From positions 667,501 to 731,500 of the forward strand of contig NZ_LT962687.1 of assembly GCF_900199635.1 (NCBI RefSeq): a stretch of 64,000 bases of DNA, read 5' to 3'. The translations under genes were made by a program, and so were the position numbers. This DNA is from Anaerotruncus massiliensis (ex Togo et al. 2026) (GTDB lineage: Bacteria; Bacillota; Clostridia; Oscillospirales; Ruminococcaceae). This document shows, one piece after another, positions 13,438-55,715 of the stretch. The notes beneath the pieces are model-generated. The model was not told the DNA's origin and did no database searches. It worked only from the letters and a program-made list of their open reading frames with translations. The first letter of the stretch is position 1, and each line of letters opens with the position of its first letter.

Positions 13438-13941
13438 CGGGTTCCTTTTCGGACGGACGAAAAGGAACGAAAAGTCCGCCTAAGGGGGCTCCACCGCCCC
13501 CTTAGGGATCCCCTGGAGTACCTTGCCATAACCCGCAGACTACCGCCGCTCCCCACGGGTACACAAGCTGAGGGCTCAATTCAGGTTGCGGACGCACCCA
13601 ACAACGCACACCGGATGGCTCGCCGGGGACCCGCGGCGAAGCCGCGCAGTTTTCCGCCTCCGCGTGGGCGCTGCGCGCCACGCAAAAGCGGCCGTGCCTC
13701 CCCGAATGTATTTTCGGTACGGTTCCGGAGGCTCGCCGGCAGAAGCATTGCGCCCGCGGCGCGGCGGCGGGCGGGATGCTGTACACCCGTCCGCTGATCC
13801 GTGACAGGGCGCCGCCGACTTTGGCCGAAGGCCAACCGGAGGCGGCGCGGGGGTCAAGGGGTTCTCCCCTTGCGGTTTCTTTCCCCCATTTCTTGTCCGC
13901 ACAAGAAATGGGGCCGCCTGCCGGGGCGGAACCCGGCAGGC
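13438..13941 (+). repeat. Dispersed structured element, copy A
   Basis: A 504-bp non-coding copy of an element found again at 44395 and 55155, in the same orientation. The order of parts is: H1 hairpin GTTCCTTTTCG/CGAAAAGGAAC (13441-13468); H2 CCTAAGGGGGC/CGCCCCCTTAGG (13479-13506); a conserved unpaired-looking block (GGAGTACCTTGCCATAACCC, CTCCCCACGGGTACAC, TTCAGGTTGCGG); H3 GCCGCCG and GGCGGC with inner TTGGCC-gaa-GGCCAA; H4 AAGGGG-ttct-CCCCTT (13856-13871); H5 CCCCATTTCTTGT-ccgc-ACAAGAAATGGGG (13884-13913); H6 CCTGCCGGG/CCCGGCAGG. There are no transposase genes or terminal inverted repeats. It lies between divergent genes. Confidence 0.85.
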
Positions 13942-14070
13942 TACGCTGCTCCCTGAGCAGCAAGCCTAAAACCGCCGTCGGTCAACCACCGACAAACTGT
14001 GCCGCTCGCTGAGCGGCAAACCTGAAACAGCCGTCGGCCGGCCACCGACATACTCCTCCGCCCGTGGGCG
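13942..14070 (+). repeat. Small palindromes following copy A
   Basis: A series of short hairpins: GCTGCTC-cct-GAGCAGC, GTCGGT-caacc-ACCGAC, GCCGCTC-gct-GAGCGGC, GTCGG-ccggcca-CCGAC and TCCGCCC-gt-GGGCGGA. The GCCGCTC-NNN-GAGCGGCAAA unit recurs beside copies B and C. No gene is seen. The promoter of the following operon must lie within or just after this stretch (about 14070-14160), where the DNA becomes AT-richer. Confidence 0.65.
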
Positions 14071-14172
14071 GAAAAAAGGAAAATTCACAACTCGCGCCTT
14101 GCGTTAGAAATAGTTCTTCTGTATAATAATAGATTGTAGTATTCCAAGGAAACGTGTCGGGAGGCGGGTAGA

Positions 14173-14394
14173 ATGGATATCCAGATCGGCGATGTGCTCA
14201 TCATGAAAAAACCGCACCCCTGCGGGGAAAACCGCTTCACGGTGGGCCGTGTGGGGATGGATTTCCGCATCCGCTGCGTCGGCTGCGGGCGCGAGGTGAT
14301 GGTGCCGCGCGCCAAGGTGGAAAAGAACATCAAAAAGGTTTTGCGCGGCGAAACCGAGCTCGGGCGGGAAGAACTCAAAATCCGGCATTTGTAG
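14173..14394 (+). CDS. DUF951 family protein
   Basis: A 73-aa small basic protein of the conserved Firmicutes DUF951 family. Features are IGDVLIMKKPHPCG near the start, then RIRCVGCGREVMVPRAKVEKNIKKV. The His-Pro-Cys and Cys-x-x-Cys residues suggest a metal-binding or nucleic-acid-binding fold; the function is unknown. The ATG at 14173 has GGGAGGCGGG upstream. It is the first gene of an apparent operon with prfA 47 bp downstream. Confidence 0.88.
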   Translation: MDIQIGDVLIMKKPHPCGENRFTVGRVGMDFRIRCVGCGREVMVPRAKVEKNIKKVLRGETELGREELKIRHL

Positions 14395-14441
14395 CAGCCT
14401 TTCCCATCCGCTGAAAAGAGAAACACACAGGAGGGAACGGC

Positions 14442-15518
14442 ATGTTTGACAAACTGGATACGGTGGCGGCGCGCTTCGAGGAGCTCGGGATGCGCCTGAT
14501 GGAACCGAACGTGACAAGCGACCCGGCCAGATACACCGAGCTGATGAAGGAATACCGGCGGCTGGAGCCGATCGTTGAAAAATACCGCGAATACAAATCC
14601 GCCAAAGAGGCCTTTGACGAGGCGAAGGAGATGCTCGACGAGGGGGGCCTCGACCCCGAGATGCGCGCGCTCGCGCAGGAGCAGTACGACGAGAACCGCG
14701 AGGTGATCGAGTCCGCGTCGCAGGAGCTGAAAATCCTGCTGCTGCCGCGCGACCCGAACGACGACAAGAACGTCATAGTGGAGATCCGCGGCGGCGCGGG
14801 CGGCGAGGAGGCGGCCCTCTTCGCGGGGGTGCTCTACCGCATGTATACGATGTACGCGGAGTCGCGCGGCTGGCAGTGCGAGGTGCTCGGCGCCAACGAG
14901 ACCGAGCTGGGCGGCTTTAAGGAGATCAGTTTTTCGATCAGCGGCGAGGGCGCCTACTCCCGCCTCAAATATGAAAGCGGCGTCCACCGGGTGCAGCGGG
15001 TGCCCGAGACGGAGACGCAGGGGCGCATCCACACCTCGACGGTGACCGTCGCGGTGCTGCCCGAGGCGGAGGAGGTCGACTTCGAGCTCGACCCCAGGGA
15101 TTTGCAGATCGACGTGTTCCGTTCGTCGGGCGCGGGCGGCCAGCACGTCAACAAGACCTCCTCGGCCATCCGCGTGACCCACCTGCCCACCGGCATGGTG
15201 GTCGAGTGCCAGGACGAGCGCAGCCAGTATAAGAATAAGGACAAGGCGCTCAAGGTCCTGCGCTCCCGCCTGCTGGACCAGAAGGTGCGGGAGCAGAACG
15301 ACCAGATCGCCTCCGAGCGCCGCTCGCAGGTGGGCACGGGGGACCGTTCGGAGCGCATCCGCACCTACAACTATCCGCAGGGCCGGGTGACCGACCACCG
15401 CATCGGGCTGACCCTCTACAAGCTCGACGCGATCCTCGACGGCGCGCTCGACGAGCTGCTCGACGCGCTGATGACCCACGATCAGGCGCAGAAGCTGCAG
15501 GCCGCGCAGGAGGAATGA
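14442..15518 (+). CDS. prfA: Peptide chain release factor 1
   Basis: A 358-aa class I release factor that terminates translation at UAA and UAG. The anticodon-like tripeptide is P-x-T, here PET in [16 protein letters not shown]2 has SPF at this position. The catalytic motif is [15 protein letters not shown] (GGQ at about residue 232). The N-terminal coiled domain, full length and ending are normal. The ATG has GGAGGG upstream. In many bacteria prmC, which methylates the GGQ glutamine, follows prfA; here sua5 follows directly after 21 bp. Confidence 0.98.
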
Positions 15519-15539
15519 ACCGATTTTGGAGATGAAACC

Positions 15540-16568
15540 TTGCAGACAAAACTTCTGAAAATCACCGATATCAGCCGCGATTCCGCGGCGCTCGACGAGG
15601 CGGCCGCGCTGCTGAGGCAGGGGAAGCTCGTCGCCATCCCGACCGAGACGGTCTACGGGCTTGCGGCAAACGCCCTCGACCCCGCCGCCGCGAAGGCGAT
15701 CTACGCGGCCAAGGGCCGCCCGAGCGACAACCCGCTCATCGTGCACGTCTCCTCGCTGGAGGAGGTCGCGCCGCTCGTTCGCGAGCTGCCCGCCGCGCTC
15801 GAACGGCTCGCCGGGCAGTTCTGGCCAGGGCCGATGACGGTCATCCTGCCGAAATCCGGCCGCGTGCCAAAGGAGACGTCGGGCGGGCTCGACACGGTGG
15901 CGGTCCGCATGCCCGCCCACCCGGTCGCGCGGGAGCTCATCCGCCGCGCGGGGGTCCCGCTCGCGGCGCCGTCGGCGAACCTCTCCGGCTCGCCCAGCCC
16001 CACCTGCGCGCGGCACTGCGTCGACGATTTGACCGGCCGGGTGGACGCGATCGTCGACGGCGGGGAGTGCGACGTGGGGGTGGAATCGACCGTGCTCACG
16101 CTGTGCACCGACCCGCCGCGGGTGCTCCGCCCCGGCGCGGTGACGCTTGAAATGCTGCGGGAGGTGCTGCCGGACATCGAATACGACCCGGGCGTCTTCG
16201 AGCACCTGCCCGACGACCGAAAGGTCGCCTCGCCCGGCATGAAGTACAGGCACTATTCCCCCAAGGCGCGGGTCGTGCTCGTGCGCGGGAGCCTCGGGCA
16301 GTTCAAACGGTTCATCGCGGCGCAGAAGCACGCGTTCGGCATCCTCTGCTTCGAGGGGGAGGAAAAACACTTCACACAAAAATGTATTACCTACGGCGCG
16401 GAAAGCGACCCCGCATCCCAGGCGCACCGGCTGTTCGACGCGCTGCGGGAGGTCGACCGCGACGGGCTGACGCTCGTATACACCAGGGTATCTGACGACG
16501 AAGGAATTGGACAGGCTGTGTACAACCGGCTGCTGCGCGCGGCCGGGTTCGACGAGGTTCTACTATAG
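15540..16568 (+). CDS. Threonylcarbamoyl-AMP synthase (Sua5/TsaC)
   Basis: A 342-aa enzyme making threonylcarbamoyl-AMP from threonine, bicarbonate and ATP, the first step of tRNA t6A37 synthesis. The N-terminal YrdC domain (about 1-205) shows PTETVYGLAANAL, KGRPSDNPLIVH, WPGPMTVIL and PLAAPSANLSGSPSPT. The C-terminal Sua5 domain (about 235-340) marks the long Sua5 form, after the linker SPGMKYRHYSPKA. The TTG start at 15540 has TTTGGAGA upstream; no in-frame ATG fits the conserved N-terminus. It lies in the DUF951-prfA-sua5-coaE operon. Confidence 0.96.
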   Translation: MQTKLLKITDISRDSAALDEAAALLRQGKLVAIPTETVYGLAANALDPAAAKAIYAAKGRPSDNPLIVHVSSLEEVAPLVRELPAALERLAGQFWPGPMTVILPKSGRVPKETSGGLDTVAVRMPAHPVARELIRRAGVPLAAPSANLSGSPSPTCARHCVDDLTGRVDAIVDGGECDVGVESTVLTLCTDPPRVLRPGAVTLEMLREVLPDIEYDPGVFEHLPDDRKVASPGMKYRHYSPKARVVLVRGSLGQFKRFIAAQKHAFGILCFEGEEKHFTQKCITYGAESDPASQAHRLFDALREVDRDGLTLVYTRVSDDEGIGQAVYNRLLRAAGFDEVLL

Positions 16569-16585
16569 GGAAGGCGGGAAACGTT

Positions 16586-17338
16586 TTGAAAAGTCAGAAT
16601 ACCATGATCATCGGCCTGACGGGGCAGACGGGCGCGGGCAAATCCACTCTGAGCGGGATGTTCGCCGGACGCGGCGTGCCGGTCATCAACGCGGACGCGG
16701 TGGCGCGGGAGACGATGGAGCACAGCCGGGCGTGCCTGATGGACCTCGTGCTCGAGTTCTCCACCGAGGTCATCCACCCCGACGCGACCCTCAACCGGGA
16801 AAAGCTGGCGGAGATCTGCTTTTCCGACCGCGCCAAATTAAAACGCCTCAATGAGATCACCTATCCATACATTATCGCGGCGATCATGCGTAAAATAGAG
16901 GAGATCAGCGCGTCGGGCGCGCCGATGCTGCTGCTCGACGCGCCGACCCTTTTCGAGTCGGGGCTCGATAAAAAATGCGACTGGATCGTGGCGGTGACCG
17001 CCGACCGGGAGGTCCGCCTGCGCCGCATCATCGCGCGGGACGCGATGACCGAGGAGGCGGCCGAACGCCGCGTGAGCGCCCAGAACCGCGACGGGTTCTA
17101 TACCTCGCGCGCGGACGATATACTGACCAATGACGGGGACCAAGACGAGCTGCGCCTCGCCTTTTCGGAGCTCTATGCCCGCCTGGAAAGGCTGGCGGCG
17201 GACGGTGCGGGGCGCCGGGCGCGCGCCGCGGAACCGGAGGCCGTGCCCGCGGACGGATCCGGCGCGGAGACGGAGGCGGACGGCGGGGAGGACCCCGACG
17301 ACGGCGGCTTTGAGGAGCTGACCGGGACGGACGAATGA
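16586..17338 (+). CDS. coaE: Dephospho-CoA kinase
   Basis: A 250-aa kinase phosphorylating dephospho-CoA at the 3' hydroxyl, the last step of CoA synthesis. The P-loop is GLTGQTGAGKSTLS (about residue 10), the substrate region is VINADAVARE, and LLDAPTLFESGLD, RRIIARDAMTEEAAERR and ILTNDGDQDEL complete the fold. The kinase ends near residue 205. About 45 acidic, Gly-rich residues follow, which the family normally lacks (EAVPADGSGAETEADGG and on). The TTG start has AAGGCGGG upstream. It lies 17 bp after sua5. Confidence 0.95.
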   Translation: MKSQNTMIIGLTGQTGAGKSTLSGMFAGRGVPVINADAVARETMEHSRACLMDLVLEFSTEVIHPDATLNREKLAEICFSDRAKLKRLNEITYPYIIAAIMRKIEEISASGAPMLLLDAPTLFESGLDKKCDWIVAVTADREVRLRRIIARDAMTEEAAERRVSAQNRDGFYTSRADDILTNDGDQDELRLAFSELYARLERLAADGAGRRARAAEPEAVPADGSGAETEADGGEDPDDGGFEELTGTDE

Positions 17339-17354
17339 ACGGAGGGGAGCGGAC

Positions 17355-17927
17355 ATCAGACGCGCTGTCAAACTGGGCTTTGAACTGCTGCTGCTCCTGC
17401 TGGCGGTGTGGGGGGCGGCAGGTCTCGCGAAATACGGCTTCGACCGCTACTACCATGGCGCCTACCCGATGAAATACACCGAGCTGATCGACGCGGCCTG
17501 CGAGGAGAAGGGCCTTGACCGCGCGCTCGTCTACGCGGTGGTGCGCACCGAGAGCGGCTTCGACCCGCGGGCGCGGTCAAACGTGGGCGCGCAGGGGCTC
17601 ATGCAGCTCATGCCCGACGCGTTCGACTGGGTGCAGATGCGCAAGGGGGGCGGCGAAGCCCCGAAGGGGGAGGACTGCTTCGACCCGGCGACCAACATCG
17701 AATACGGCACGTCGATGCTGCGCATCCTGCTCGACGAGTTCGGCACGGTGGAAAACGTCCTCTGCGCCTACCACGCGGGCTGGGGCAGCGCCAAGCAGTG
17801 GCTGGGCGACCCCGCCCACGCGCCCGACGGCGAGCACATCACCGACATCCCCTTCGACGACACCCGCGCCTATGTGGCGAAGGTGAAAAAGACGATGGAG
17901 GTCTACCGGAGACTCTATGATCTGTAA
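17355..17927 (+). CDS. Lytic transglycosylase, SLT domain (apparent ATC start)
   Basis: A membrane-anchored murein lytic transglycosylase. The SLT domain covers residues about 40-185: catalytic Glu in VVRTESGFDPRA, then GAQGLMQLMPDAF, NIEYGTSMLRILL and AYHAGWG. In this frame the only ATG/GTG/TTG near the front is GTG at 17406, which would cut the N-terminal signal anchor in half. From ATC at 17355 the protein reads RRAVKLGFELLLLLLAVWG, a typical basic-plus-hydrophobic anchor. GGAGGGG lies exactly 7 nt before that ATC. I therefore give 17355, with 17406 as the conservative alternative. It lies 16 bp after coaE. Confidence 0.85.
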   Translation: MRRAVKLGFELLLLLLAVWGAAGLAKYGFDRYYHGAYPMKYTELIDAACEEKGLDRALVYAVVRTESGFDPRARSNVGAQGLMQLMPDAFDWVQMRKGGGEAPKGEDCFDPATNIEYGTSMLRILLDEFGTVENVLCAYHAGWGSAKQWLGDPAHAPDGEHITDIPFDDTRAYVAKVKKTMEVYRRLYDL

Positions 17928-18008
17928 GAACAGCCGCCGCGCGTTCCAGGCCCGGCGGCCGGTTTTTGCGGCGGCAATAGAAATCACACTACAGGAGGTT
18001 TTACAGCT

Positions 18009-19418
18009 ATGGATAAAGAGAACAGGACCGCGGGCGAGCTGCTGCAGGAGAAGCTCTGCATCAACCGCAGGAACATCGGGCTGACCGCGACCGACGGGGA
18101 GGAAGCGGCGGCGCAGGCGTTCTGCGAGCCCTACAAGCAGTTCCTCGACGCCTGCAAGACCGAGCGCGAGGCGGTCACCTACATCGTGGCCAGGGCGCAG
18201 GCGGCGGGCTACAAGCCCTTCGATCCCAAGGAGGTCTATCTGCCGGGCGACCGGGTCTACTACAACAACCGCGGCAAGGCGGTCATCCTCTCGACGATCG
18301 GCACCCGCCCGATGTCCGACGGGGTGCGCATCATGGCCAGCCACATCGATTCCCCCCGCCTCGACCTCAAGCCCAACCCGCTCTATGAGGAGGCGCAGCT
18401 CGCCCTCTTCAAGACCCACTACTACGGCGGCATCAAAAAGTACCAGTGGGGCGCGATCCCGCTGGCGCTGCACGGCGTCATCGTCAAGAAGAACGGCGAG
18501 ACGATCACCTGCGCGATCGGCGAGGCCGAGGACGACCCCGTCTTCACCGTGACCGACCTGCTGCCCCACCTCGCACAGGAGCAGATGAAGCGCACCCTCG
18601 CCGAGGGGCTCAAGGGGGAGGAGCTCAACGTGCTCGTCGGCTGCCGCCCCTTCAAGGACGACAAGGTGAGCGAGAAGGTGAAGCTCAACATCATCCGCCT
18701 GCTCAACGAGAAGTACGGCGTCGTCGAGGAGGACTTCCTCTCCGCCGAGCTGACCGCGGTGCCGCAGTTTAAGGCCCGCGACGTCGGGCTCGACCGCTCG
18801 ATGGTCGGCTCCTACGGCCACGACGACCGCGTCTGCGCCTACACCTCGCTGATGGCCGAGCTCGAGGCCGAAAACCCCGCGTATACGACCGTCACCGTCT
18901 TCACCGACAAGGAGGAGACCGGCTCGGACGGCAACACCGGCCTCAACTCCAACTACCTGAAATACTTCATCAAGGACCTCGCCGGGATGCACGGGCTCTC
19001 GGGCCGCGAGGTGCTCTCGAAATCCACCTGCCTGTCGGCGGACGTGAACGCTGCCTACGACCCGACCTTCGGCGACACGCTGGAAAAACGCAACTGCGCC
19101 TACCTCAACCAGGGCGTCGTCGTGACCCAGTACACCGGCGCGCGCGGCAAGAGCGGCACGAGCCAGGCGTCCGCCGAGTTCATGGCCGAGATCCGCAACC
19201 TGCTCGACGACGCGAAGGTCGTCTGGCAGACGGGCGAGCTCGGCAAGGTCGATCTGGGCGGCGGCGGCACCGTCGCGATGTATATCGCGGCGCTCAACGT
19301 CGACGTGGTCGACGTGGGCGTGCCGGTGCTCTCGATGCACGCCCCCTTCGAGGTCGTCTCCAAGCAGGACGTCTACCAGACCTACCGCGCCTTCCGGGCG
19401 TATATCGCCGCGAAATAG
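18009..19418 (+). CDS. apeB: M18 family aminopeptidase
   Basis: A 469-aa cytosolic zinc aminopeptidase of the M18 (aminopeptidase I / ApeB) family, the long clostridial form. Metal-binding and catalytic motifs are MASHIDSPRLDLK (His, about residue 112), VGSYGHDDRVCAYTS (bridging Asp), FTDKEETGSDG (Glu pair), LSADVNAAYDP (Asp) and VPVLSMHAPFEVVS (His, about 443). The ATG has ACAGGAGG upstream. It lies 81 bp after the transglycosylase gene, perhaps in the same transcript, and upstream of a lysine exporter. Confidence 0.95.
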   Translation: MDKENRTAGELLQEKLCINRRNIGLTATDGEEAAAQAFCEPYKQFLDACKTEREAVTYIVARAQAAGYKPFDPKEVYLPGDRVYYNNRGKAVILSTIGTRPMSDGVRIMASHIDSPRLDLKPNPLYEEAQLALFKTHYYGGIKKYQWGAIPLALHGVIVKKNGETITCAIGEAEDDPVFTVTDLLPHLAQEQMKRTLAEGLKGEELNVLVGCRPFKDDKVSEKVKLNIIRLLNEKYGVVEEDFLSAELTAVPQFKARDVGLDRSMVGSYGHDDRVCAYTSLMAELEAENPAYTTVTVFTDKEETGSDGNTGLNSNYLKYFIKDLAGMHGLSGREVLSKSTCLSADVNAAYDPTFGDTLEKRNCAYLNQGVVVTQYTGARGKSGTSQASAEFMAEIRNLLDDAKVVWQTGELGKVDLGGGGTVAMYIAALNVDVVDVGVPVLSMHAPFEVVSKQDVYQTYRAFRAYIAAK

Positions 19419-19498
19419 CGGGCCCCGTTCCCGCCGCCCGCAGCCGCGGGCGGCAGCCTCCCGGCCGCCGGAGAGCGGCAGATTTTCCAACAGTCAGG

Positions 19499-19819
19499 AT
19501 GGTTCGTTTGTTTGACTTCTTAGGTCCCTTTTCGCTGATCGTCTACTTCGCGGTCGGCATCATCATCGGCGTGACAATTTTCCCGCTCAGGTGGCTCCGG
19601 CTCAACGGATGGCTTCAGACGGTGGGCATCGCGCTCACCCTCTTTTCAATGGGCGCGTCGATGGCGGGCAGCCCCACCTTCCTCACCGACCTGCGCACGG
19701 CGGGCGTGCGCGCCTTTCTTTTCGCGGCGGTGACGATCGCGGGCTCGGTGCTGCTGGTCTACATACTCTCCCGGATCACCCTGCCGCGGCAGGTGCGGAA
19801 AAAGGAGGATGCGGAATGA
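19499..19819 (+). CDS. Lysine exporter LysO, N-terminal half as separate gene
   Basis: A 106-aa hydrophobic protein with three membrane segments (LIVYFAVGIIIGVTIF, LQTVGIALTLFSMGASM, AFLFAAVTIAGSVLLVYIL). It corresponds to the first part of LysO/YbjE (DUF340, about 300 aa in E. coli). The reading frame ends in ATGA, overlapping the start of the next gene, which carries the rest. The two together give 305 aa, so the protein appears to be made as two co-translated subunits. The ribosome site is weak (GTCAGG). Confidence 0.8.
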   Translation: MVRLFDFLGPFSLIVYFAVGIIIGVTIFPLRWLRLNGWLQTVGIALTLFSMGASMAGSPTFLTDLRTAGVRAFLFAAVTIAGSVLLVYILSRITLPRQVRKKEDAE

Positions 19820-43244: not shown

Positions 43245-43274
43245 ATCAAATTGACGAGAAGGAGTGTCCGTATC

Positions 43275-44198
43275 ATGAACCGTCTTGAAAAATACCTCGA
43301 AGTTTCCCCCCGTATCCGGGAGGCCCTCGACAACAACCGTCCGGTGGTCACGCTGGAATCCACCATCATCTCTCACGGCATGCCCTATCCGCGCAACGTC
43401 GAAACCGCCCTCAAGGTGGAGGAGGTCGTCCGGAGCTGCGGCGCCGAACCCGCGACGGTGGCCGTCATCGGCGGCAAGCTGAAGGTGGGCATCTCGGAAG
43501 AGGAGATCACTCATCTGGGCAAGAAGGGGCTCGGCGTCATCAAGGCCAGCCGCCGCGATCTGCCGGTGCTCTGCGCCCGCGGCGAGGACGGCGCCACCAC
43601 GGTGGCCGCCACGATGATCCTCTCCGCGCTGGCCGGGGTCCAGGTCTTCGCCACCGGCGGCGTGGGCGGCGTGCACCGCGGCGCCGAGACGACGATGGAC
43701 ATCTCCGCCGACCTGGAGGAGCTGGCCGAAACCCCCGTCATGGTGGTCTGCGCCGGCGCCAAGTCGATCCTTGACCTCGGGCTCACGCTCGAATACCTGG
43801 AGACGAAGGGCGTCACCGTGCTGGGCTACCAGACGGAGGAGCTTCCCGCCTTCTATACGCGCAAGAGCGGCTTCAAGGTCGATTACCGCATGGATACCCC
43901 CGAGGAGATCGCGGCGGCGTTTTCTGCCAAGGAGGACCTGGGACTCCGTGGCGGCATGCTGGTCACCAACCCCATCCCCGAGCAGTACGCCATGGACCAT
44001 GACTACATCTCCCGCACCATCGAGGACGCCTGCGCCGAGGCCGCGCAGAAGGGCGTCAAGGGCAAGGAGCTGACTCCCTTCCTGCTCGACCGGATCCAGC
44101 AGATCACCGCCGGCAAGAGCCTCGAAGCCAACATCGAGCTTGTGTATAACAACGCGCGGCTGGCCTCGCGGATCGCGGTTGAGCTCTGCAAAAAATAA
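43275..44198 (+). CDS. psuG: Pseudouridine-5'-phosphate glycosidase
   Basis: A 307-aa Mn-dependent enzyme that splits pseudouridine 5'-phosphate into uracil and ribose 5-phosphate. Signatures are VVTLESTIISHGMPYPRN, the catalytic-lysine region KASRRDLP (about 93), TVAATMILSALAGVQVFATGGVGGVHRG in two joined blocks, and LGYQTEELPAFYTRKSG. The ATG has GAAGGAG upstream. It lies 30 bp after psuK and completes the pathway fed by the upstream ABC importer. Confidence 0.97.
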   Translation: MNRLEKYLEVSPRIREALDNNRPVVTLESTIISHGMPYPRNVETALKVEEVVRSCGAEPATVAVIGGKLKVGISEEEITHLGKKGLGVIKASRRDLPVLCARGEDGATTVAATMILSALAGVQVFATGGVGGVHRGAETTMDISADLEELAETPVMVVCAGAKSILDLGLTLEYLETKGVTVLGYQTEELPAFYTRKSGFKVDYRMDTPEEIAAAFSAKEDLGLRGGMLVTNPIPEQYAMDHDYISRTIEDACAEAAQKGVKGKELTPFLLDRIQQITAGKSLEANIELVYNNARLASRIAVELCKK

Positions 44199-44394
44199 AG
44201 GCGGCATTTGCTGCCCGTGAGCGGCGGAGGTTGCCGCGCTGCGACGGCCCGCAGGCCTAGTGCCGGAGGCGTGTCCCGCCGACGGCCGCCCGGCGGAATC
44301 CTCTTGAGTTTACCTCGCTGCGCCCGGCGGGGCGTAGACGGGAATTGCCGCTTTCCAAGCGGCAAGAAATACGAGCGCGTTCCGCCGCGCGGCA
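44199..44394 (+). repeat. Palindrome-rich lead-in to copy B
   Basis: No gene. It contains short hairpins, among them GCTGCCCGTGAGCGGC-like pairs near 44210 and TTGCCGCTT-tcc-AAGCGGCAA (44345-44365). The latter occupies the same position as TTGCCGCCC-gt-GGGCGGCAA before copy A, with different but still complementary arms. No clear terminator for psuG is visible. Confidence 0.6.
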
Positions 44395-45067
44395 CGGGTT
44401 CCTTTTCGGACGGACGAAAAGGAACCAAAAGTCCGCCTAAGAACCCTCCGCCGGGTTCTTAGGGATCTCCGGGAGTACCTTGCCATAACCCGCGGACTAC
44501 CGTCACTCCCCACGGGTACACCAGCTGAAGGCTCAATTCAGGTTGCGGGCGCTCCCAACGATGAAAACAACGGCGCGGCGAGCTTGTCAGGCAGGGGTAC
44601 ACGCATCGGCTTGACCGATCGCGGGGTCGGTTGCGGGCAGGGGCCGCAACTGACGTGCGCCCTGCGCTCCCAACGACCGAAGCCGGATGGCTCGCCGGGG
44701 ACACCCGACGGAAAACAACGCCCGTTCCGGGCGTTCGCGCGCCCTGCGCGCGTGCGCGGCGTAGCCGCGCAGTTTTCCGCCTCCCCGTGGGAGATGCGCG
44801 CCACGCAAAAGCGGCCGTGTCTCCCCGGGCGCACTTTCGATTCGGTACCGGAGGCTCTCGGGCAGTGGCATTGCGCCCGCGGCGCGGCGGCTGGCGGGAT
44901 GCTGTAGGCTCGCTCGCTCATCCGTGACAGGGTGCCGCCGACTTTGGCCGAAGGCCAACCGGAGGCGGCGCTGGGGGTCAAGGGGGCGCAGCCCCCTGCG
45001 GCTTCTTTCCCCCATTTCTTGTCCGTACAAGAAATGGGGCCGCCCGCCGGGGCGGGACCCGGCAAGC
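44395..45067 (+). repeat. Dispersed structured element, copy B
   Basis: A 673-bp non-coding copy. H1 GTTCCTTTTCG/CGAAAAGGAAC (44398-44425) matches copy A. H2 is CCTAAGAACC/GGTTCTTAGG (44436-44463), a different stem in the same place. The conserved block (GGAGTACCTTGCCATAACCC, CTCCCCACGGGTACAC, TTCAGGTTGCGGGCGCTCCC) follows. About 130 bp present here and absent from A and C (roughly 44560-44690) repeats GGTTGCGGGC and GCGCTCCCAACGA, so it looks like a partial internal duplication. H4 is GGGGGC-gca-GCCCCC (44982-44996); H5 CCCCATTTCTTGT/ACAAGAAATGGGG follows. Confidence 0.85.
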
Positions 45068-45195
45068 TCCGCCGCTTCATGAGCGGCAAATCGGTGGGCC
45101 ACCGGCAAGCTCCGCCGCTTCCCGAGCGGCATATCTAAAGCGCCGCCACCCGCCGGGGCGAGAGCGGAAAGCTCCGCCGCTCCTCGAGCGGCAAA
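45068..45195 (+). repeat. Small GCCGCTC palindromes following copy B
   Basis: Three near-identical units, each with an AGCTCCGCCGCT left part and an AGCGGC right part: about 45064-45087 (loop TCATG), 45110-45132 (loop CCCG) and 45172-45193 (loop CTC). CGGTG-gg-CCACCG lies between them. They stop just before the ribU promoter. No gene. Confidence 0.7.
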
Positions 45196-45217
45196 CAAAA
45201 GGCCCACGGCAACCCCC

Positions 45218-45245: not shown

Positions 45246-45260
45246 AAAACCACAAAGTCT

Positions 45261-45370
45261 GTTTCAGGGCGGGGTGAAAGTCCCCACTGGCGGTACAGTC
45301 CGCGAACCGGCGCAAGTCGGCCGAATGGGTGCGATTCCCATACCAACGGTATAGTCCGGATGAAAGAAAC
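45261..45370 (+). ncRNA. FMN riboswitch (RFN element)
   Basis: The closing stem pairs GTTTC (45261) with GAAAC (45366). Conserved RFN parts are present in order: AGGGCGGGGTGAAAGTCCCC, ACTGGCGGTA, AGTCCGCGA, CCGAATGGGTGCGATTCCCA-type arm and TAGTCCGGATGAAAGAAAC. It senses FMN and controls the riboflavin transporter downstream through the terminator at 45406. Confidence 0.97.
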
Positions 45371-45405
45371 GGCGTATATTCGCGGATTTTCCGCCGATAT
45401 GCCCG

Positions 45406-46090: not shown

Positions 46091-46190
46091 TTTACCTTAT
46101 AAAGAGCGGCGGAGGGACTGGCCCTGTGAAGCCCGGCAACCTGCATTGCAAGGTGCCAAATCCAGCGGTATGACCGAGAGATGAGGAAAT
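46091..46190 (+). ncRNA. SAM-I riboswitch (S-box leader)
   Basis: P1 pairs TTTxCCTTAT (46091-46100) with ATGAGGxAAT (46181-46190). The canonical core follows: AGCGGCGGAGGGACTGGCCC, TGAAGCCCGGCAACC, the AAGGTGCCAAATCC arm and the P4 segment GTATGACCGAGAG. A terminator follows at once, so SAM excess should stop transcription. The first gene downstream is an amidase; metK is third. Confidence 0.96.
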
Positions 46191-48835: not shown

Positions 48836-48887
48836 AATTTGTATATTGAAGCCCGGAGGGGCTGGACGAAAGGAAGTTCGATAGAAG

Positions 48888-50072: not shown

Positions 50073-50091
50073 GGCCCAAAACGCCTCACAC

Positions 50092-50131
50092 AAAATCACC
50101 TCGGAACATAGGATGTTCCGAGGTGATTTTT
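50092..50131 (+). terminator. metK terminator overlapping next gene's ribosome site
   Basis: The 17-bp arms AAAATCACCTCGGAACA and TGTTCCGAGGTGATTTT flank a TAGGA loop with a T run. The right arm contains GAGGTGA, the ribosome site of the gene starting at 50133, so read-through transcripts would have this site masked. Confidence 0.85.
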
Positions 50132-50132
50132 C

Positions 50133-50462
50133 ATGCTGCACATCCTGGGAATCGGCCTGCTGTCGGTCTTCGCCTGCATCGGGTTCATCCACGCGGCCGC
50201 GTGGCTCGCGGTGCGCCTGAGCCGGAAAGGCAACGGGGTTTACAAGGTCGTGCCGGTCGGCGGAGAAGGGAAAAATTCGGGCGACCAGATGTCCCTCTTC
50301 TACGCCTGCCTCCAGTGGGAATCCAACCCGAGCGGTCAAGTGCTTCTGCTTTACGACGCGGGCCTCGACGAGCGGGCGGCGCGCGACTGCGAGGAGCTCG
50401 CGCGCGGCGCGGGGGTGCGTTTCGTCCGCTCCCCGGAGGAGCTGGCGGGGCTCCTGCGCTAG
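50133..50462 (+). CDS. Small membrane-anchored protein of unknown function
   Basis: A 109-aa protein. Residues about 2-27 form one membrane anchor (LHILGIGLLSVFACIGFIHA). A cytosolic domain follows (VYKVVPVGGEGKNSGDQMS, LLLYDAGLDERAARDCEELA) that looks like a small alpha/beta fold. I recognise no family. The ATG is 2 nt after the metK terminator, with the only ribosome site (GAGGTGA) inside the terminator stem. Expression therefore probably depends on read-through with ribosome-assisted opening. Confidence 0.75.
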   Translation: MLHILGIGLLSVFACIGFIHAAAWLAVRLSRKGNGVYKVVPVGGEGKNSGDQMSLFYACLQWESNPSGQVLLLYDAGLDERAARDCEELARGAGVRFVRSPEELAGLLR

Positions 50463-50484
50463 GGGCCGCAGGCTCCCGGCGCGC

Positions 50485-50513
50485 TTGCGCTTTCCCGCGC
50501 GGACGGCTATAAT
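50485..50513 (+). promoter_or_regulatory. recD2-comF promoter
   Basis: TTGCGC and TATAAT with 17-bp spacing, 36 bp upstream of the recD2 start. Confidence 0.8.
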
Positions 50514-50549
50514 GATAGCTGTAAATCTTCGCGCGGGGAGGGAAGGAAC

Positions 50550-52772
50550 ATGGAGCTTGGCGAACGCTACCGGCTGGAGGGCGGGGTGGAGACGGTCATC
50601 TTCCACAGCGAGCAGACGGGCTTTACGGTGCTCGAGCTTTCGGCTGACGGCGAGCTGGTCACCGTGGTCGGGGAGTTCGTGGGCATCGCCGTCGGCGAGA
50701 CGCTCATCGTGGAGGGGGTGTACGCCACCCACCCGAAATACGGCCTCCAGCTCAAGGCGGACAAGTATGAGCGGCTGCTCCCGGCGACCGCCGCCGCCAT
50801 CGCCTCCTATCTCTCCTCCGGCGCGATCAAGGGGATCGGCCCCAAGACCGCCGGGCGGCTGGTCGCGCGGTTTGGGGACGAGACGCTCACCGTGATCGAA
50901 CAGAATCCGGCAAGGCTCACTGAGGTTTCCGGAATTTCGCCAAAAAAAGCGGAACAAATTTCCAATGAGTATCGAAAATTGTTTGGTATACGAACTGTAA
51001 TGCTATATCTGGCGAAAATCGGCGTTCCCGCGCCCTTCGCGATCAAGGCGTGGAAGAAGTTCGGCCCCCAGGCGCAGGAGATCGTGTCGCAGAACCCCTA
51101 TGTGCTCTGCTGCGAGGAGATCGGCGTGCCCTTCGAGACGGCGGACGCCGCGGCCGACGCGGCGGGGCTCGCGCCCGACAGCTTCGAGCGGATCGCCGCG
51201 GGCATTCTGCACGTGCTGCGCCACAACAGCATGAACAACGGCCACACCTGTCTGCCCGAGCCGAAGCTGCTCGAGACGGCGGCGCGGCTCGTCCAGACGG
51301 ACAGCTACCACGCCGCCGACGTGCTCGAGGAGCTCGTGGCGCGCGGGGAGCTGGTGCGGCTCGATGTAAAGGGGGAGCCCTTCCTCTACGTCCCCCGCTA
51401 CTACGAGGCGGAGTGCTACATCGCCTCCAAGCTCGCCCTCATGCGCGACCAGCGGGGGGAGGGCCTCACCCCCGATCTCGAGGCTGCGATCTCCGCGCTC
51501 GAGCAAAAGCAGGGGATCACCTACGCGGCGCTCCAGCGGGAGGCGATCGTCACGGCGGTCACCTCCCCCCTCATGATCCTCACCGGCGGCCCCGGCACCG
51601 GCAAGACGACGGCGATCTCGGCGATCATCCGCCTGCTCGGGCAGATGGGGGAGAAGGTGGCGCTCGCCGCGCCGACCGGGCGCGCCGCCAAGCGGATGAC
51701 CGAGCTGACCGGCGTGGAGGCCAGGACGGTCCACCGGCTGCTCGAGGTCGACTTCGACGACGGCTCGGGGGTCACCAAATTCAAGCGCGGGGAGAAGAAC
51801 CCGCTGCCCTGCGAGGCGGTCATCATCGACGAGACCTCGATGATGGACACGCTCCTCTTCGAGTCGCTGCTGCGCGCCGTCAAGTTCTCCTGCCGGCTCA
51901 TCCTCGTCGGCGACCCCGACCAGCTGCCGTCGGTCGGCGCGGGCAACATTCTGAGCGACCTCATCGCGAGCGGCAAGCTCCCCGTCGTGCACCTGTCGGA
52001 GATCTTCCGGCAGGCGGCCAAAAGCCTCATCGTCACCAACGCGCACGCGATCGTCTCGGGGGAGGACCCTCGGCTTGACGCGCGGGACAACGACTTCTTC
52101 TTCCTGCCCGAGCAGCAGTCGGCGCGCATCTGCGCGACCGCCGCCGATCTCTGCGCGCGGCGGCTGCCCAAGAGCTACGGCTTTTCGCCGATGTGGGACA
52201 TCCAGGTGATCGCGCCGACAAGGGTGGGCGCGGCGGGCACCGGGGAGCTCAACCGGGTGCTCCAGCAGGCGCTCAACCCGCCCGACGAGCGCAAAAAGGA
52301 ATTTTCCTCCGGCCCCCAGACGCTGCGCGAGGGGGACAAGGTCATGCAGGTGAAGAACAACTACGACCTCCTGTGGGAAAAGGAGGACGGCGAGGAGGGA
52401 CTCGGCATCTTCAACGGCGACATCGGCGTGATCGAGCTCATCAACCGCCCCTCCTCGTCGATCATCGTGCGGTTCGACGAGGGCCGCCGCGCGGAGTACT
52501 CCTTCGACATGGCGGGCGAGCTCGAGCTCGCCTACGCGATCACCGTGCACAAGAGCCAGGGCAACGAGTACGACGCGGTCATCCTGCCGCTCGCGGAGGG
52601 ACGCAGCCGCATGTATTACCGGAGCCTGCTCTACACGGCGGTCACCCGCGCAAAAAAGCTGCTCATCATCCTCGGTTCGGCCTCGGCGGTGCGCACGATG
52701 GTGCAGAGCCACAAGCGGACCCGCCGCTACGCCAACCTGCGGTTTTTGCTGGGGGAGGTGTGCGATGGCTAG
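50550..52772 (+). CDS. recD2: ATP-dependent RecD2-type DNA helicase
   Basis: A 740-aa SF1B 5'-3' helicase of the RecB/C-independent RecD2 family. The N-terminal OB-like and helix-hairpin-helix regions (about 70-200: GAIKGIGPKTAGRLVARFG, EVSGISPKKAEQI) mark RecD2. Motor motifs are GGPGTGKTTAIS (about 345), APTGRAAKRM, VIIDETSMMD, LVGDPDQLPSVGAG and YAITVHKSQGNEYDAVILP. Residues about 130-155 are encoded by an AT-rich stretch (50941-51000 has 19 G/C of 60) unlike the rest of the gene. The ATG has GGGAGGGAAGG upstream. It overlaps comF by 8 bp. Confidence 0.97.
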   Translation: MELGERYRLEGGVETVIFHSEQTGFTVLELSADGELVTVVGEFVGIAVGETLIVEGVYATHPKYGLQLKADKYERLLPATAAAIASYLSSGAIKGIGPKTAGRLVARFGDETLTVIEQNPARLTEVSGISPKKAEQISNEYRKLFGIRTVMLYLAKIGVPAPFAIKAWKKFGPQAQEIVSQNPYVLCCEEIGVPFETADAAADAAGLAPDSFERIAAGILHVLRHNSMNNGHTCLPEPKLLETAARLVQTDSYHAADVLEELVARGELVRLDVKGEPFLYVPRYYEAECYIASKLALMRDQRGEGLTPDLEAAISALEQKQGITYAALQREAIVTAVTSPLMILTGGPGTGKTTAISAIIRLLGQMGEKVALAAPTGRAAKRMTELTGVEARTVHRLLEVDFDDGSGVTKFKRGEKNPLPCEAVIIDETSMMDTLLFESLLRAVKFSCRLILVGDPDQLPSVGAGNILSDLIASGKLPVVHLSEIFRQAAKSLIVTNAHAIVSGEDPRLDARDNDFFFLPEQQSARICATAADLCARRLPKSYGFSPMWDIQVIAPTRVGAAGTGELNRVLQQALNPPDERKKEFSSGPQTLREGDKVMQVKNNYDLLWEKEDGEEGLGIFNGDIGVIELINRPSSSIIVRFDEGRRAEYSFDMAGELELAYAITVHKSQGNEYDAVILPLAEGRSRMYYRSLLYTAVTRAKKLLIILGSASAVRTMVQSHKRTRRYANLRFLLGEVCDG

Positions 52773-53493
52773 CCTGTGGGAGCGCGCGCTCACCCTGCTC
52801 TTCCCGCACAAATGCTTCCTCTGCGGGCGGGTGCTCGCGGGGGAGGGGTGGCTCTGCGGGGAGTGCGGTCTGCCCGAGACGGCGGGGGAGGCCTGCCCCG
52901 GCTGCGGCAAGCGGCTGGACCGGTGCGTCTGCGAGGCGTCCGGCCCGGTCTGTGACGGCGTGTCCGCGGCGCTCTGGTATGAGGGCGGCGTGCGCCGGGG
53001 CATCCACCGGTACAAATACAGCGGGCGCAGCTATTACGCGCCCTTCCTCGCGGCGCTGATGGCAAAGCGGGTGCGCGGCGACTTTGGGGACGGGGCGTTC
53101 GACCTCGTCACCTGGGTGCCGCTGCACCGCAAAAAGCTCCGCCGGCGCGGGTTCTGCCAGACCGAGCTGCTGGCGCGGGAGCTTTCCCGGCGGCTGGGCG
53201 CGCCCGCCAAAGGCGGGCTCCTGGCCCATACGGGAAAGGGCGGCGCGCAGGCGCGGCAGGAGGGCGCCGCGGCGAGGGAACAGAACGCGCGGGAGGCATT
53301 CTCCCTCTGCCGGGGCGCGGCGCTCAGGGGGGAGCGGGTGCTGCTCGTGGACGACGTGCTCACGACGGGCGCGACGGCCCGCCGGTGCGCGGAGCTTCTC
53401 AAAAAGGCGGGCGCGGGGGAGGTCCGCCTCACCGTGGCGGCCACGACGCCCGCCGGGCAGAGGAAAATGGCGGCAAATGGCGGGCGGCGTTGA
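52765..53493 (+). CDS. comF: ComF family protein (phosphoribosyltransferase-like)
   Basis: A 242-aa protein. N-terminal Cys pairs (CFLCGRVL, CGECG, CPGCGKRLDRC) form a zinc-ribbon-like region. The C-terminal phosphoribosyltransferase fold has LVTWVPLHRKKLRRRGFCQ and the PRPP loop VLLVDDVLTTGATARR. In Bacillus, ComFC supports DNA uptake; elsewhere the role is less clear. The overlap with recD2 and the shared promoter suggest DNA handling. The usual comFA helicase partner is absent. Confidence 0.93.
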   Translation: MASLWERALTLLFPHKCFLCGRVLAGEGWLCGECGLPETAGEACPGCGKRLDRCVCEASGPVCDGVSAALWYEGGVRRGIHRYKYSGRSYYAPFLAALMAKRVRGDFGDGAFDLVTWVPLHRKKLRRRGFCQTELLARELSRRLGAPAKGGLLAHTGKGGAQARQEGAAAREQNAREAFSLCRGAALRGERVLLVDDVLTTGATARRCAELLKKAGAGEVRLTVAATTPAGQRKMAANGGRR

Positions 53494-53518
53494 ATTCTGC
53501 TGTAAATTGTTGTATAAT
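53490..53518 (+). promoter_or_regulatory. Promoter of the mreB homologue
   Basis: TTGAAT and TATAAT with 17-bp spacing. The -35 overlaps the comF stop codon. Confidence 0.8.
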
Positions 53519-53564
53519 GGTGCGGTAATGAATCGGGCGGGGCCCGTCAGGGGGACAAAATCGT

Positions 53565-54581
53565 ATGAATTCAATCGACATCGGGATCGACCTGGGAACG
53601 GCGACGGTACTCGTCTATAACGGCGCGCACGGCATCGTGCTGCGGGAGCCCTCGGTCGTGGCGATCAACACCCGCACCGGGGACGTGCTCAGCGTGGGGG
53701 ACGAGGCGCACGACATGCTGGGCAAGACGCCCGCGAAGATCACCGCCATCCGCCCGCTGGAGGACGGGGTCATCTCCGACTACAAGATGACCGAGGCGAT
53801 GATCAAATACTTCATGAAAAAGGCCTGTCCCAACAATATGATGAAACCGCGGGTGGCGCTCTGCGTGCCCTCGCTCATCACTGGCGTGGAGGCGCAGGCG
53901 GCGGTCGACGCCGCCGTGCAGGCGGGCGCGCGCAGCGTCTACCTGATCGAGGAGCCGGTCGCGGCGGCGATCGGCGCGGGTATCGACATCTCGCGGCCGA
54001 ACGGCAACCTCATCCTCGACATCGGCGGCGGTACGAGCGACATCGCGGTGCTCTCCCTCAACGGCATCGTCTGCAAAACGTCGATCAAGCTGGCGGGGGA
54101 CAAGTTCAACGCCGCGATCATCAAATACATGCGTTCCCGCTACAACGTCCTGCTCGGCGAGCGGATGGCCGAGCGGGTCAAGATCGCGATCGCGAGCGTC
54201 GACCGCGACGCGGAGGACGCGTCCTATGAAGTGAAGGGCCGCCACCTTGCGACCGGACTGCCGACCAAGGTGCTGCTCACCCGGAAGGAACTCTATCCGG
54301 TGATGGTCGAGCTGGTGGACGAGATCCGCGCGGCGGTCCATTCGGTCGTCGAACGCACGCCGCCCGAGCTTGTCGGGGACATCTTCACCAACGGCATGGT
54401 CATGACCGGCGGCGGCGCGATGCTCCACGGCATGGATGTCTATATGTCCCGCGAGCTCAAGATGCCGGTGCGCCTCGCGGAAAACCCCGTCGAATGCGTC
54501 GCGGTCGGCACCGGGCTTTCCTTCCAGTATATCGACCAGCTCGTGGACGGGTTTGTAGCTTCCTCCACCCACCGCCACTGA
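53565..54581 (+). CDS. Rod shape-determining protein, MreB/Mbl family
   Basis: A 338-aa bacterial actin. ATP-binding motifs are IGIDLGTATVLVYNG (phosphate 1), GNLILDIGGGTSDIAVLS (phosphate 2) and GMVMTGGGAMLHGMD (adenosine). EEPVAAAIGAGIDI completes the fold. It organises cell-wall synthesis on the inner membrane. No mreC/mreD follow, so this is likely an Mbl/MreBH-like stand-alone paralogue. The ATG has GGGGGACAAAATCGT upstream, a weak site. Confidence 0.95.
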   Translation: MNSIDIGIDLGTATVLVYNGAHGIVLREPSVVAINTRTGDVLSVGDEAHDMLGKTPAKITAIRPLEDGVISDYKMTEAMIKYFMKKACPNNMMKPRVALCVPSLITGVEAQAAVDAAVQAGARSVYLIEEPVAAAIGAGIDISRPNGNLILDIGGGTSDIAVLSLNGIVCKTSIKLAGDKFNAAIIKYMRSRYNVLLGERMAERVKIAIASVDRDAEDASYEVKGRHLATGLPTKVLLTRKELYPVMVELVDEIRAAVHSVVERTPPELVGDIFTNGMVMTGGGAMLHGMDVYMSRELKMPVRLAENPVECVAVGTGLSFQYIDQLVDGFVASSTHRH

Positions 54582-54600
54582 GCGGCCAATCGTATATTTG

Positions 54601-54643
54601 CCTCCTTTGGTTGGAATACTTTAGGTATCCCAATTGAAGGAGG
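54601..54643 (+). promoter_or_regulatory. Ribosome-site-sequestering hairpin of the coat gene
   Basis: CCTCCTTTGGTTGG (54601-54614) pairs with CCAATTGAAGGAGG (54630-54643), 14 positions with three G-T pairs. An inner AATAC/GGTAT stem lies around TTTA. The whole AAGGAGG ribosome site of the gene at 54653 is in the right arm, so translation should be off unless the hairpin is opened. The trigger is unknown. Confidence 0.7.
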
Positions 54644-54652
54644 TTGTTTTTT

Positions 54653-54835
54653 ATGCCTTTGACGTCCAAAGAGCTTTCCGCCATCGAGGACCAGCTCGGC
54701 GTGGAACAGACGCTCGTCAAAAAGTTCGCGCTTTATGCCCAGATGACCACCGACCCGCAGCTCAAGACCCAGTTTGAACAGAACTCCGCGAAACACCAAA
54801 ACCATTATGACCGGCTGCTCCAGCAGCTGGGGTAG
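54653..54835 (+). CDS. Small CotF-like spore coat protein
   Basis: A 60-aa helical protein (PLTSKELSAIEDQLGVEQTL, VKKFALYAQMT, HYDRLLQQLG). It resembles the helix-rich first part of CotF-family proteins and is followed 8 bp later by a gene with the rest of that pattern. The ATG at 54653 lies 9 nt after AAGGAGG; an in-frame TTG three codons earlier is too close to it. Expression during sporulation is inferred from the family. Confidence 0.75.
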   Translation: MPLTSKELSAIEDQLGVEQTLVKKFALYAQMTTDPQLKTQFEQNSAKHQNHYDRLLQQLG

Positions 54836-54843
54836 GAGGGCGT

Positions 54844-55107
54844 ATGAACCAGCAGAAACTGTTCGGCGACCGTGAAATGATGGAGGACGTGCTTTCGAGC
54901 CAGAAATTCGTCACCGAGGGCTACAACACCTTCGCGAACGAATGCGCGTCGCCAGCCGTCATGAGCGAGCTTATGAACATCCTCAATGAGGAACACCAGA
55001 TTCAGCACGAGGTCTTCGACGAGATGGTCAAGCGCGGCTGGTACCAGACCGAGCCCGCCCCGCAGAAGAAGATCGACCAGTGTAAGCAGCAGCACGCGCA
55101 GGGCTAA
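54844..55107 (+). CDS. Spore coat protein CotF family
   Basis: An 87-aa protein with the coat F domain pattern: FGDREMMEDVLSSQKFVTEG, YNTFANECASPAV, LNEEHQIQHEVFDEMVKRGWY, ending in the typical Gln-rich tail. These are small helical-bundle proteins of the spore coat in Firmicutes and indicate a spore-former. The ATG has GGTAGGAGGG upstream. Second gene of the two-gene coat unit. Confidence 0.88.
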   Translation: MNQQKLFGDREMMEDVLSSQKFVTEGYNTFANECASPAVMSELMNILNEEHQIQHEVFDEMVKRGWYQTEPAPQKKIDQCKQQHAQG

Positions 55108-55154
55108 ATCTTGCCGCTCGGGGAGCGGTGTAGCTTGCCGGTAGTCGACCGGCG
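55108..55154 (+). repeat. Small palindromes leading into copy C
   Basis: TTGCCGCTC-ggg-GAGCGG (about 55113-55129) and GCCGGT-agtcg-ACCGGC (about 55136-55153). The first corresponds to the TTGCC-initiated hairpin before copies A and B. Confidence 0.6.
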
Positions 55155-55715
55155 GCGAGTGACTTTCTTTACGTCAAAGAAAGTCACCAAAGAAGGACGC
55201 CAAAGGACCCTCCGCCGGGTCCTTTGGAATCCCCGGGAGTACCTTGCCAAGACCCGCGAACTACCGCCACTCCCCACGGGTACACCAGCTGTGGGCACAA
55301 TTCTGGTTGCGGGCGCTCCCAACAACGGCTGTCGGAAGGCTCGTCGGGGACATACGGCGGAAAACAACGCCCCGTTCCGGGCGTTCGCGCGCCTTGCGCG
55401 CGTGCGCGGCAAAGCCGCGCAGTTTTCCGCCTCCCCGTGGGCGTTGCGCGCCACGCAAAAGCGGTCGTGCCTCCCCGGGCGCACTTCCGGTACGGTTCCG
55501 GAGACTCTCGGGCAGAGGCATTGCGCCCGCGGCGCGGCGGCAGGCGGGATGCTGTAGGCTCGTCCGCTGATCCGTGGCAGGGCGCCGCCGACTTTGGCCG
55601 AAGGACAACCGGAGGCGGCGTGGGGGTCAAGGGGGCGCAGCCCCCTGCGGCTTCTTTCCCCCATTTCTTGTCCGTACAAGAAATGGGGCCGCCCGCCGGG
55701 GCGGGACCCGGCAAC
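55155..55715 (+). repeat. Dispersed structured element, copy C
   Basis: A 561-bp non-coding copy. H1 here is GTGACTTTCTTT/AAAGAAAGTCAC (55159-55187), completely different bases from A and B but fully paired. H2 is CCAAAGGACC/GGTCCTTTGG (55200-55227), again changed on both arms. The conserved block GGGAGTACCTTGCC, CTCCCCACGGGTACACCAGC and GGTTGCGGGCGCTCCCAACAA follows. GGCGGAAAAC/GTTTTCCGCC encloses inner hairpins AACGCCCC/GGGGCGTT-like and TGCGCGGC/GCCGCGCA. H4 is GGGGGC-gca-GCCCCC (55631-55645); H5 as in the others. Confidence 0.85.

What the first reader, a model, noticed from the sequence alone, without database searches (positions are those of the whole stretch)
13438..55715. Three-copy structured non-coding element with compensatory stem changes
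Copies at 13438-13941, 44395-45067 and 55155-55715 share a conserved block and the same order of hairpins, all in one orientation. H2 reads CCTAAGGGGGC/..CCCCCTTAGG in A, CCTAAGAACC/GGTTCTTAGG in B and CCAAAGGACC/GGTCCTTTGG in C. H1 is GTTCCTTTTCG/CGAAAAGGAAC in A and B but GTGACTTTCTTT/AAAGAAAGTCAC in C. H4 is AAGGGG/CCCCTT in A and GGGGGC/GCCCCC in B and C. The sequence differs while pairing is kept, which is the signature of selected secondary structure. There is no transposase, coding signal or terminal repeat. It may be an undescribed large RNA family, or a mobile element whose spread depends on structure.
Basis: partly seen in the sequence, partly recalled or inferred. Interest (0 to 1): 0.85.

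Follow-up and report, generated by a model that had tools for sequence, protein, structure and literature searches.

The report
Hairpin-ended, probably mobile DNA repeat
The three sequences are copies of a DNA repeat present about fifty times in this bacterium's genome; its two ends carry matching hairpins in mirror orientation, a few copies carry small DNA-binding protein genes, and elements with the same kind of ends but other interiors occur here and there in the bacterial order, so it looks like a mobile DNA element rather than a new RNA gene.

Summary
The three copies belong to a family of about 50 in this genome, on both strands, between genes. The statement that there is no terminal repeat is wrong: the ends are imperfect inverted repeats built of hairpins (H1, linker AAAGAAG, H2). 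Pairing-preserving changes are strongly supported in the end hairpins (214 of 295 flank positions Watson-Crick over 59 variants; shuffled 88, maximum 117), hardly in the core (4 of 94 pairs). G-T pairs are not favoured over A-C, and mirror-image ends argue for recognition as DNA. Eleven loci hold a small, mostly helix-turn-helix or ribbon-helix-helix gene at the ends, in stretches of lower GC. No Rfam match; no Y1/RAYT transposase. The core was found only here; the end architecture recurs sporadically in the order with other interiors. Best reading: MITE-like mobile elements without their own transposase, with structured ends, some acting as small gene cassettes. The enzyme that moves them, and movement itself, remain to be shown.

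The parts
12904..13417 (+). 5' flank of copy A: array of short hairpins (REP-like); limits set by eye
   Evidence: sequence; flanks of other copies aligned
13418..13484 (+). copy A, left end E5a (outer hairpin H1 and linker)
   Evidence: module mapping, (C7:680918-680984)
13505..13602 (+). copy A, left subterminal module P
13632..13691 (+). copy A, partial Q hairpin cargo
13685..13850 (+). copy A, right subterminal module T (model R1)
13866..13918 (+). copy A, right end E3a (H4, linker, outer hairpin H5)
44199..44374 (+). 5' flank hairpin array of copy B; limits set by eye
44375..44441 (+). copy B, left end E5a
44462..44559 (+). copy B, module P
44560..44705 (+). copy B, stretch between P and Q, about 115 nt longer than in copy C
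44706..44814 (+). copy B, Q triple-hairpin cargo
44808..44970 (+). copy B, module T
44990..45044 (+). copy B, right end E3a
45045..45210 (+). 3' flank hairpin array of copy B; limits set by eye
55108..55161 (+). copy C, short 5' flank hairpins; limits set by eye
55162..55200 (+). copy C, left end E5c (H1 GTGACTTTCTTT/AAAGAAAGTCAC and AAAGAAG linker)
55226..55323 (+). copy C, module P
55355..55464 (+). copy C, Q triple-hairpin cargo
55458..55623 (+). copy C, module T
55639..55693 (+). copy C, right end E3a

Best explanation
Copies A, B and C are gene-free (MITE-like) members of a dispersed mobile element. A full unit has two structured ends in mirror orientation: from outside inwards a hairpin H1 (in many ends with core TTTCTT/AAGAAA), a linker (AAAGAAG or variant), a second hairpin H2, and a subterminal module (P or R on the left, T on the right; P-P, R-R and T-T pairs also occur). 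Between the ends lies cargo: in most copies only a triple hairpin Q, in some a small helix-turn-helix or ribbon-helix-helix gene, often with a divergent small partner gene. Shown: copy number, mirror ends, pairing-preserving changes in the end hairpins, cargo genes, the core found in this genome only, the end architecture found elsewhere. Inferred: that an enzyme supplied in trans recognises the end hairpins as DNA and moves or copies the unit, and that the cargo regulators bind the ends or control the process.
For: About 50 copies, both strands, between genes. Ends are imperfect inverted repeats. H1 flanks: 214 of 295 positions Watson-Crick over 59 distinct variants, shuffled mean 88.2, maximum 117 of 5000. 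A second hairpin of arm >= 6 follows the linker in 24 of 36 own and 50 of 95 other distinct ends against 55 of 393 control windows; of arm >= 8 in 4, 30 and 16. Same ends with other interiors in other genera and families. Seven units hold a small gene with an end on both sides (L148, L150, L152, L153, L154, L160, L161) and four with an end on one side (L147, L149, L156, L157). 9 of 52 HTH_3 matches of the genome lie within 400 nt of a P, R or T module (8 as cargo, 1 outside a left end); uniform random placement gives 1.02, maximum 5 of 2000. Cargo GC 0.44-0.56 against 0.63-0.65 in binned genome stretches. The core is absent by DNA search from 60 relatives, by model from the same 60 except one weak match in G039, E = 9.1e-4, and from 395 other genomes of the family.
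Against: No transposase was seen in any unit, and the Y1 family is absent from the genome; other transposase families were not searched. No target-site duplication and no true empty site were shown: at the one sister locus compared the next gene differs. Copies differ from copy C by 6-22%, so recent activity is not shown. Module swapping could come from recombination alone. Four single ends lie beside genes that are not small regulators (L146, L151, L159, L162). In other genomes a second mirror end was found for only 8 of 32 ends examined, and a small HTH gene beside the end for 1 of 32. G063, with 52 pattern matches, shows no second hairpin at the loci fetched. The relative searches scored few candidates per genome (11, 47 and 7 at most).
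Confidence: 0.62

Rival explanations
1. A large structured non-coding RNA family, transcribed from the plus strand, with many paralogues in one genome.
For: Strong predicted structure; module T folds better on the plus strand (-54.6 against -35.6 kcal/mol), though the whole core does not (-117.0 against -116.3); the last stem of T, read by eye, is kept with quite different arms in diverged copies L082, L083, L084 and L090; paired columns vary little (0.012 against 0.189 in A2).
Against: Only 4 of 94 predicted core pairs ever change on both sides, 1 of 38 in T. In stems predicted on both strands G-T and A-C changes are about equal (8 and 7 in A2, 1 and 1 in A3); in H1 flanks G-T 9, A-C 18. No Rfam match. 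The end motif is inverted at the two ends. Terminator-like hairpins, seen by eye, stand between some cargo genes and the ends.
Confidence: 0.12
2. Passive palindromic repeats (REP/BIME-like) spread and homogenised by recombination and template switching, with roles, if any, as terminators or topology sites.
For: Mosaic exchange of hairpin modules; all 35 of 35 flank positions Watson-Crick over 7 variants in own ends; hairpin arrays on the flanks; few copies between divergent genes (3 of 49 with both neighbours called, against 12 convergent).
Against: Recombination alone does not easily bring a unit of 500-1400 bp with two mirror ends, at times with genes, to about 50 sites (inference); HTH genes are enriched at the end modules.
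Confidence: 0.16
3. The real unit is a horizontally acquired regulator cassette (HTH or RHH plus small partner, perhaps an addiction module), and the structured ends are its own 3' regulatory regions.
For: Of the 11 loci, 9 have a DNA-binding protein above the Pfam cut-off, 1 below it (L147) and 1 only by eye (L160); the ends lie downstream of the genes in the units read; cargo GC is low.
Against: 43 of the 50 mapped core loci have no recognised cargo gene; terminator-like hairpins separate some genes from the ends; 4 partner proteins have no match in NCBIfam, and 1 of 7 partners matches Pfam (DUF6809).
Confidence: 0.1

Closest known systems
REPIN / RAYT systems (PMC3116915, passages seen)
   Same: Non-autonomous repeats made of two palindromic units in inverted order, many copies, hairpins thought to be recognised by a transposase in trans.
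   Different: Much longer (about 500-1400 bp), two hairpins per end with a linker, some carry genes, no Y1/RAYT gene in this genome.
Bacterial MITEs (definition recalled; a passage of PMC3116915 likens REPINs to them)
   Same: Short, mostly non-coding, inverted terminal repeats, many copies, no own transposase.
   Different: Ends are themselves chains of hairpins; no parent transposon and no target duplication shown; some units carry regulator genes.
GTAG- and CGTC-tagged REPs (PMC3733652, abstract and outline seen)
   Same: Palindromes often in opposite orientation, located mainly between co-directional or convergent genes; the CGTC type lacks a dedicated transposase.
   Different: Unit is composite and long; no GTAG or CGTC tag was noticed beside H1 by eye, not searched.
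Large structured RNAs ROOL, GOLLD, OLE, HEARO (Rfam)
   Same: Long structured non-coding sequence.
   Different: No match to any of these at gathering threshold in the window or in 20 loci.

Membership tests
REPIN/RAYT | RAYT (Y1 transposase) gene in the genome | tested here: not met
   PF01797: 0 matches in G000, control rings in 5 of 14 genomes; genome 98.75% complete
REPIN/RAYT | two palindromic units in inverted order | tested here: met
IS200/IS605 derivative | Y1 transposase in the genome as a source | tested here: not met
   no PF01797; that IS200/IS605 subterminal hairpins are not mirror-image is recalled, here they are
MITE | terminal inverted repeats, many short copies | tested here: met
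MITE | target-site duplication | tested here: inconclusive
   outer boundary blurred by hairpin arrays; three G632 copies read by eye show no obvious duplication
MITE | related autonomous transposon | tested here: inconclusive
   no transposase recognised: frames listed in 8 loci, gene finder over 50 loci finds one small gene inside, L156, L157, L159-L162 read by eye; transposase families other than Y1 not searched
Known Rfam RNA family | covariance-model match at gathering score | tested here: not met
   (copy C, E <= 10) gives only matches far below gathering
New structured RNA family | covariation across the molecule | tested here: inconclusive
   strong only in end hairpins and, by eye, the last stem of T; core 4 of 94 pairs
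New structured RNA family | transcript | not testable with these tools
   no RNA-seq available

The most novel reading that the evidence does not exclude
An undescribed class of mobile elements without their own transposase, spread over at least several families of the order: mirror ends made of a double hairpin with an AAAGAAG linker, interiors that turn over completely between species, and small horizontally acquired DNA-binding genes as cargo, moved by an enzyme not yet known that reads hairpin DNA.
Probability: 0.35. Interest if true: 0.75.

Novelty: new variant of a known kind. Interest (0 to 1): 0.56.

Why it matters
If right, repeats that a reader would take for a giant RNA are mobile DNA with structured ends, in many copies in several families of one bacterial order, and able to carry small regulator genes. 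It also warns that compensatory changes in palindromes are not by themselves proof of RNA: here Watson-Crick pairing is kept without a G-U excess and in mirror-image ends. It leaves a concrete search problem: which enzyme recognises these ends.

Tried and rejected
Large RNA: built a covariance model of module T and searched 60 relatives, 395 further family genomes and the own genome; outside this genome only a weak match in G039 (22.2 bits). One search scored 7 candidates per genome and up to 47, so weak relatives may be missed.

REPIN/RAYT or IS200: rejected for lack of PF01797.

Phage or plasmid origin: blastn of copy C finds nothing in 50,697 phage and 72,556 plasmid records; one exact pattern from module T finds nothing in viral contigs. 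In genome contigs the pattern has 9 single hits in unrelated taxa, read as chance: the T model gives those loci at most 15.9 bits, and that one away from the pattern.

Coding: my codon-usage gene finder calls no gene inside A, B or C, and inside only one of 50 mapped loci, a cargo gene; it misses most small cargo genes, so this is a weak test for short genes.

Empty site: the protein upstream of copy B was found in 2 sister genomes, where only a terminator-like hairpin follows, but the next gene differs.

Defence or addiction cargo: PADLOC, 6 proteins, matches only HTH-type models for the two HTH proteins and nothing for the other four.

Literature: eight listings (titles and abstract starts, several lists capped at 6-20 rows) show no paper on such elements; the library holds open-licence papers only, so absence there is not proof.
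Full report
What is there. The window is C7:667501-731500 of a 3.15-Mb genome. BLAST with copy C gives 96 matching pieces in that genome, the long ones at 78-94% identity; 41 copies of the right-hand module T were aligned (A3) and a model from them (R1) finds 50 places at E <= 0.001, on both strands. Of 51 groups of modules mapped by BLAST in fetched loci, 50 contain a core module. Relative to the element's direction (taken as plus for three groups of mixed direction) both neighbouring genes point against it in 22, with it in 12, towards it in 12, away from it in 3, and one neighbour was not called in 1. At 2 of the 50 loci a called frame overlaps the element; I take these for chance frames.

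Anatomy. From left to right a unit is: flanking arrays of short hairpins; left end E5 (hairpin H1, linker, hairpin H2); module P (or its diverged form R); cargo; module T; right end E3 (hairpin H4, linker, hairpin H5); flanking arrays in mirror orientation. The linker reads AAAGAAG in several left ends and CTTCTTT in the commonest right end; another common left end (E5a, 24 places) has a variant. So the ends are imperfect inverted repeats; ten pieces of BLAST of copy C show its right end matching the opposite strand near left ends of other copies at 79-89%. Most copies have the triple hairpin Q between P and T; two have P directly joined to T (L082, L084). A further multi-hairpin module N sits in H2 in some copies and, reversed, in H4 in others.

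Cargo genes. In seven loci with an end on each side (L148, L150, L152, L153, L154, L160, L161) and four with an end on one side (L147, L149, L156, L157) the space next to P, R or T holds a small gene for a DNA-binding protein, often beside a divergent small gene. Pfam finds HTH_3 or HTH_26 above the cut-off in seven loci (L148, L150, L152, L153, L154, L156, L157), RHH_3 in L161 and Arc in L149; the L147 protein matches HTH profiles only below the cut-off and the L160 protein none, so its RHH label is my reading by eye. One of 7 partner proteins scanned matches Pfam (DUF6809, L149). Four further single ends lie beside genes that are not small regulators (L146, L151, L159, L162). P-P (L160), R-R (L154) and T-T (L148) pairs occur. 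Nine of 52 HTH_3 matches of the genome lie within 400 nt of a P, R or T module, 8 as cargo and 1 just outside a left end; uniform random placement along C7 gives 1.02 on average and at most 5 in 2000 trials. The cargo stretches have GC 0.44-0.56, the binned genome stretches 0.63-0.65.

Is structure selected, and as what? The five base pairs below the fixed TTTCTT/AAGAAA part of H1 vary widely but stay paired: over 59 distinct variants from all loci held, 214 of 295 positions are Watson-Crick, against 88.2 (SD 8.1, maximum 117) when right flanks are shuffled among variants 5000 times; for the 35 variants followed by a second hairpin 147 of 175 against 59.2 (maximum 86) (an earlier, smaller run is). 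These sets include chance matches of the pattern. A second hairpin with arm of at least 6 follows the linker in 24 of 36 own and 50 of 95 other distinct ends, against 55 of 393 control windows; with arm of at least 8 in 4, 30 and 16. In the core, by contrast, only 4 of 94 predicted pairs (26 copies) and 1 of 38 pairs of T (41 copies) ever change on both sides. Diverged T copies keep the last stem with different arms (by eye), a real but single case; the model itself marks several of these pairs as broken in L084 and L090. If RNA were selected, G-T pairs should be better tolerated than A-C on the transcribed strand: in stems predicted on both strands the counts are 8 and 7 (A2) and 1 and 1 (A3), and in H1 flanks 9 and 18. 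Against this, T alone folds better on the plus strand. So pairing is conserved, but little points to RNA; the mirror orientation of an asymmetric end motif is what one expects of DNA ends. This last step is inference.

Distribution. DNA search with the core finds nothing in 60 relatives. R1 finds no copy in 10 same-genus and 26 same-family genomes and a weak match in one of 24 of the order (G039), and none in 395 other genomes of the family; these searches scored at most 11, 47 and 7 candidates per genome. The end motif TTTCTTN{3,10}AAGAAAN{2,10}AAAGAAG occurs 49 times here with 0 in the backward control. It matches in 43 of 396 family genomes and 29 of 394 order genomes, this genome counted in both. 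Five or more matches are found in 9 genomes of the family sample and 11 of the order sample, this one counted in both, in seven families; backward controls reach at most 2 in any genome. G063 (52 matches) shows no second hairpin at the loci I fetched and may be something else. In G011, G679 and G632 mirror pairs bound units with quite different interiors. Of 32 ends examined in other genomes a second mirror end was found for 8, and a small HTH gene beside the end for one (L228, G276; a second HTH hit, L217, is a larger protein). G276 thus repeats the cargo arrangement once; its far end was not found.

Mechanism. Best supported: a non-autonomous mobile element with structured ends, moved or copied in trans. 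No transposase was recognised in any unit, and Y1/RAYT is absent. Which enzyme acts, whether it reads the hairpins, and what the regulators do are open. I put 0.62 on the mobile reading.

Known relatives. It works like a REPIN or MITE but is not filed as either: the RAYT test failed, and target duplication and a parent transposon are not shown. For REPIN I saw passages of PMC3116915, for tagged REPs the abstract and outline of PMC3733652. Searches for a description of these elements listed none; lists were capped and cover open-licence papers only.

Noticed in passing
G000 C7 (whole contig): Only 1 of 45 T-module copies on C7 lies between 0.90 and 1.90 Mb, the side that GC skew of fetched stretches marks as the terminus.
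   Followed up: partly
L206:7349-7381 (G632:C121): A genome of another family (73% complete) carries an end motif of 33 bases identical to this genome's commonest right end, but its interior differs; transfer or contamination.
   Followed up: partly
L213, L214 (G626), L130, L131 (G011), L135 (G057): H2 loops read TTTCGATTC, TTCCGATTC or similar, which resembles a tRNA T-arm (resemblance recalled, not tested).
   Followed up: no
many loci, e.g. L003, L009, L152: Multi-hairpin module N appears in H2 and, in reverse, in H4 of different copies, and in H2 seems to replace loop and part of an arm rather than simply insert.
   Followed up: partly
window 10952-11050, 45256-45375, 46094-46187: Azaaromatic, FMN and SAM riboswitches; the FMN riboswitch begins about 50 nt after the 3' hairpin array of copy B.
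   Followed up: no
window 43251-44198: The protein upstream of copy B has five matches in the genome, itself included, one with an in-frame TGA.
   Followed up: no
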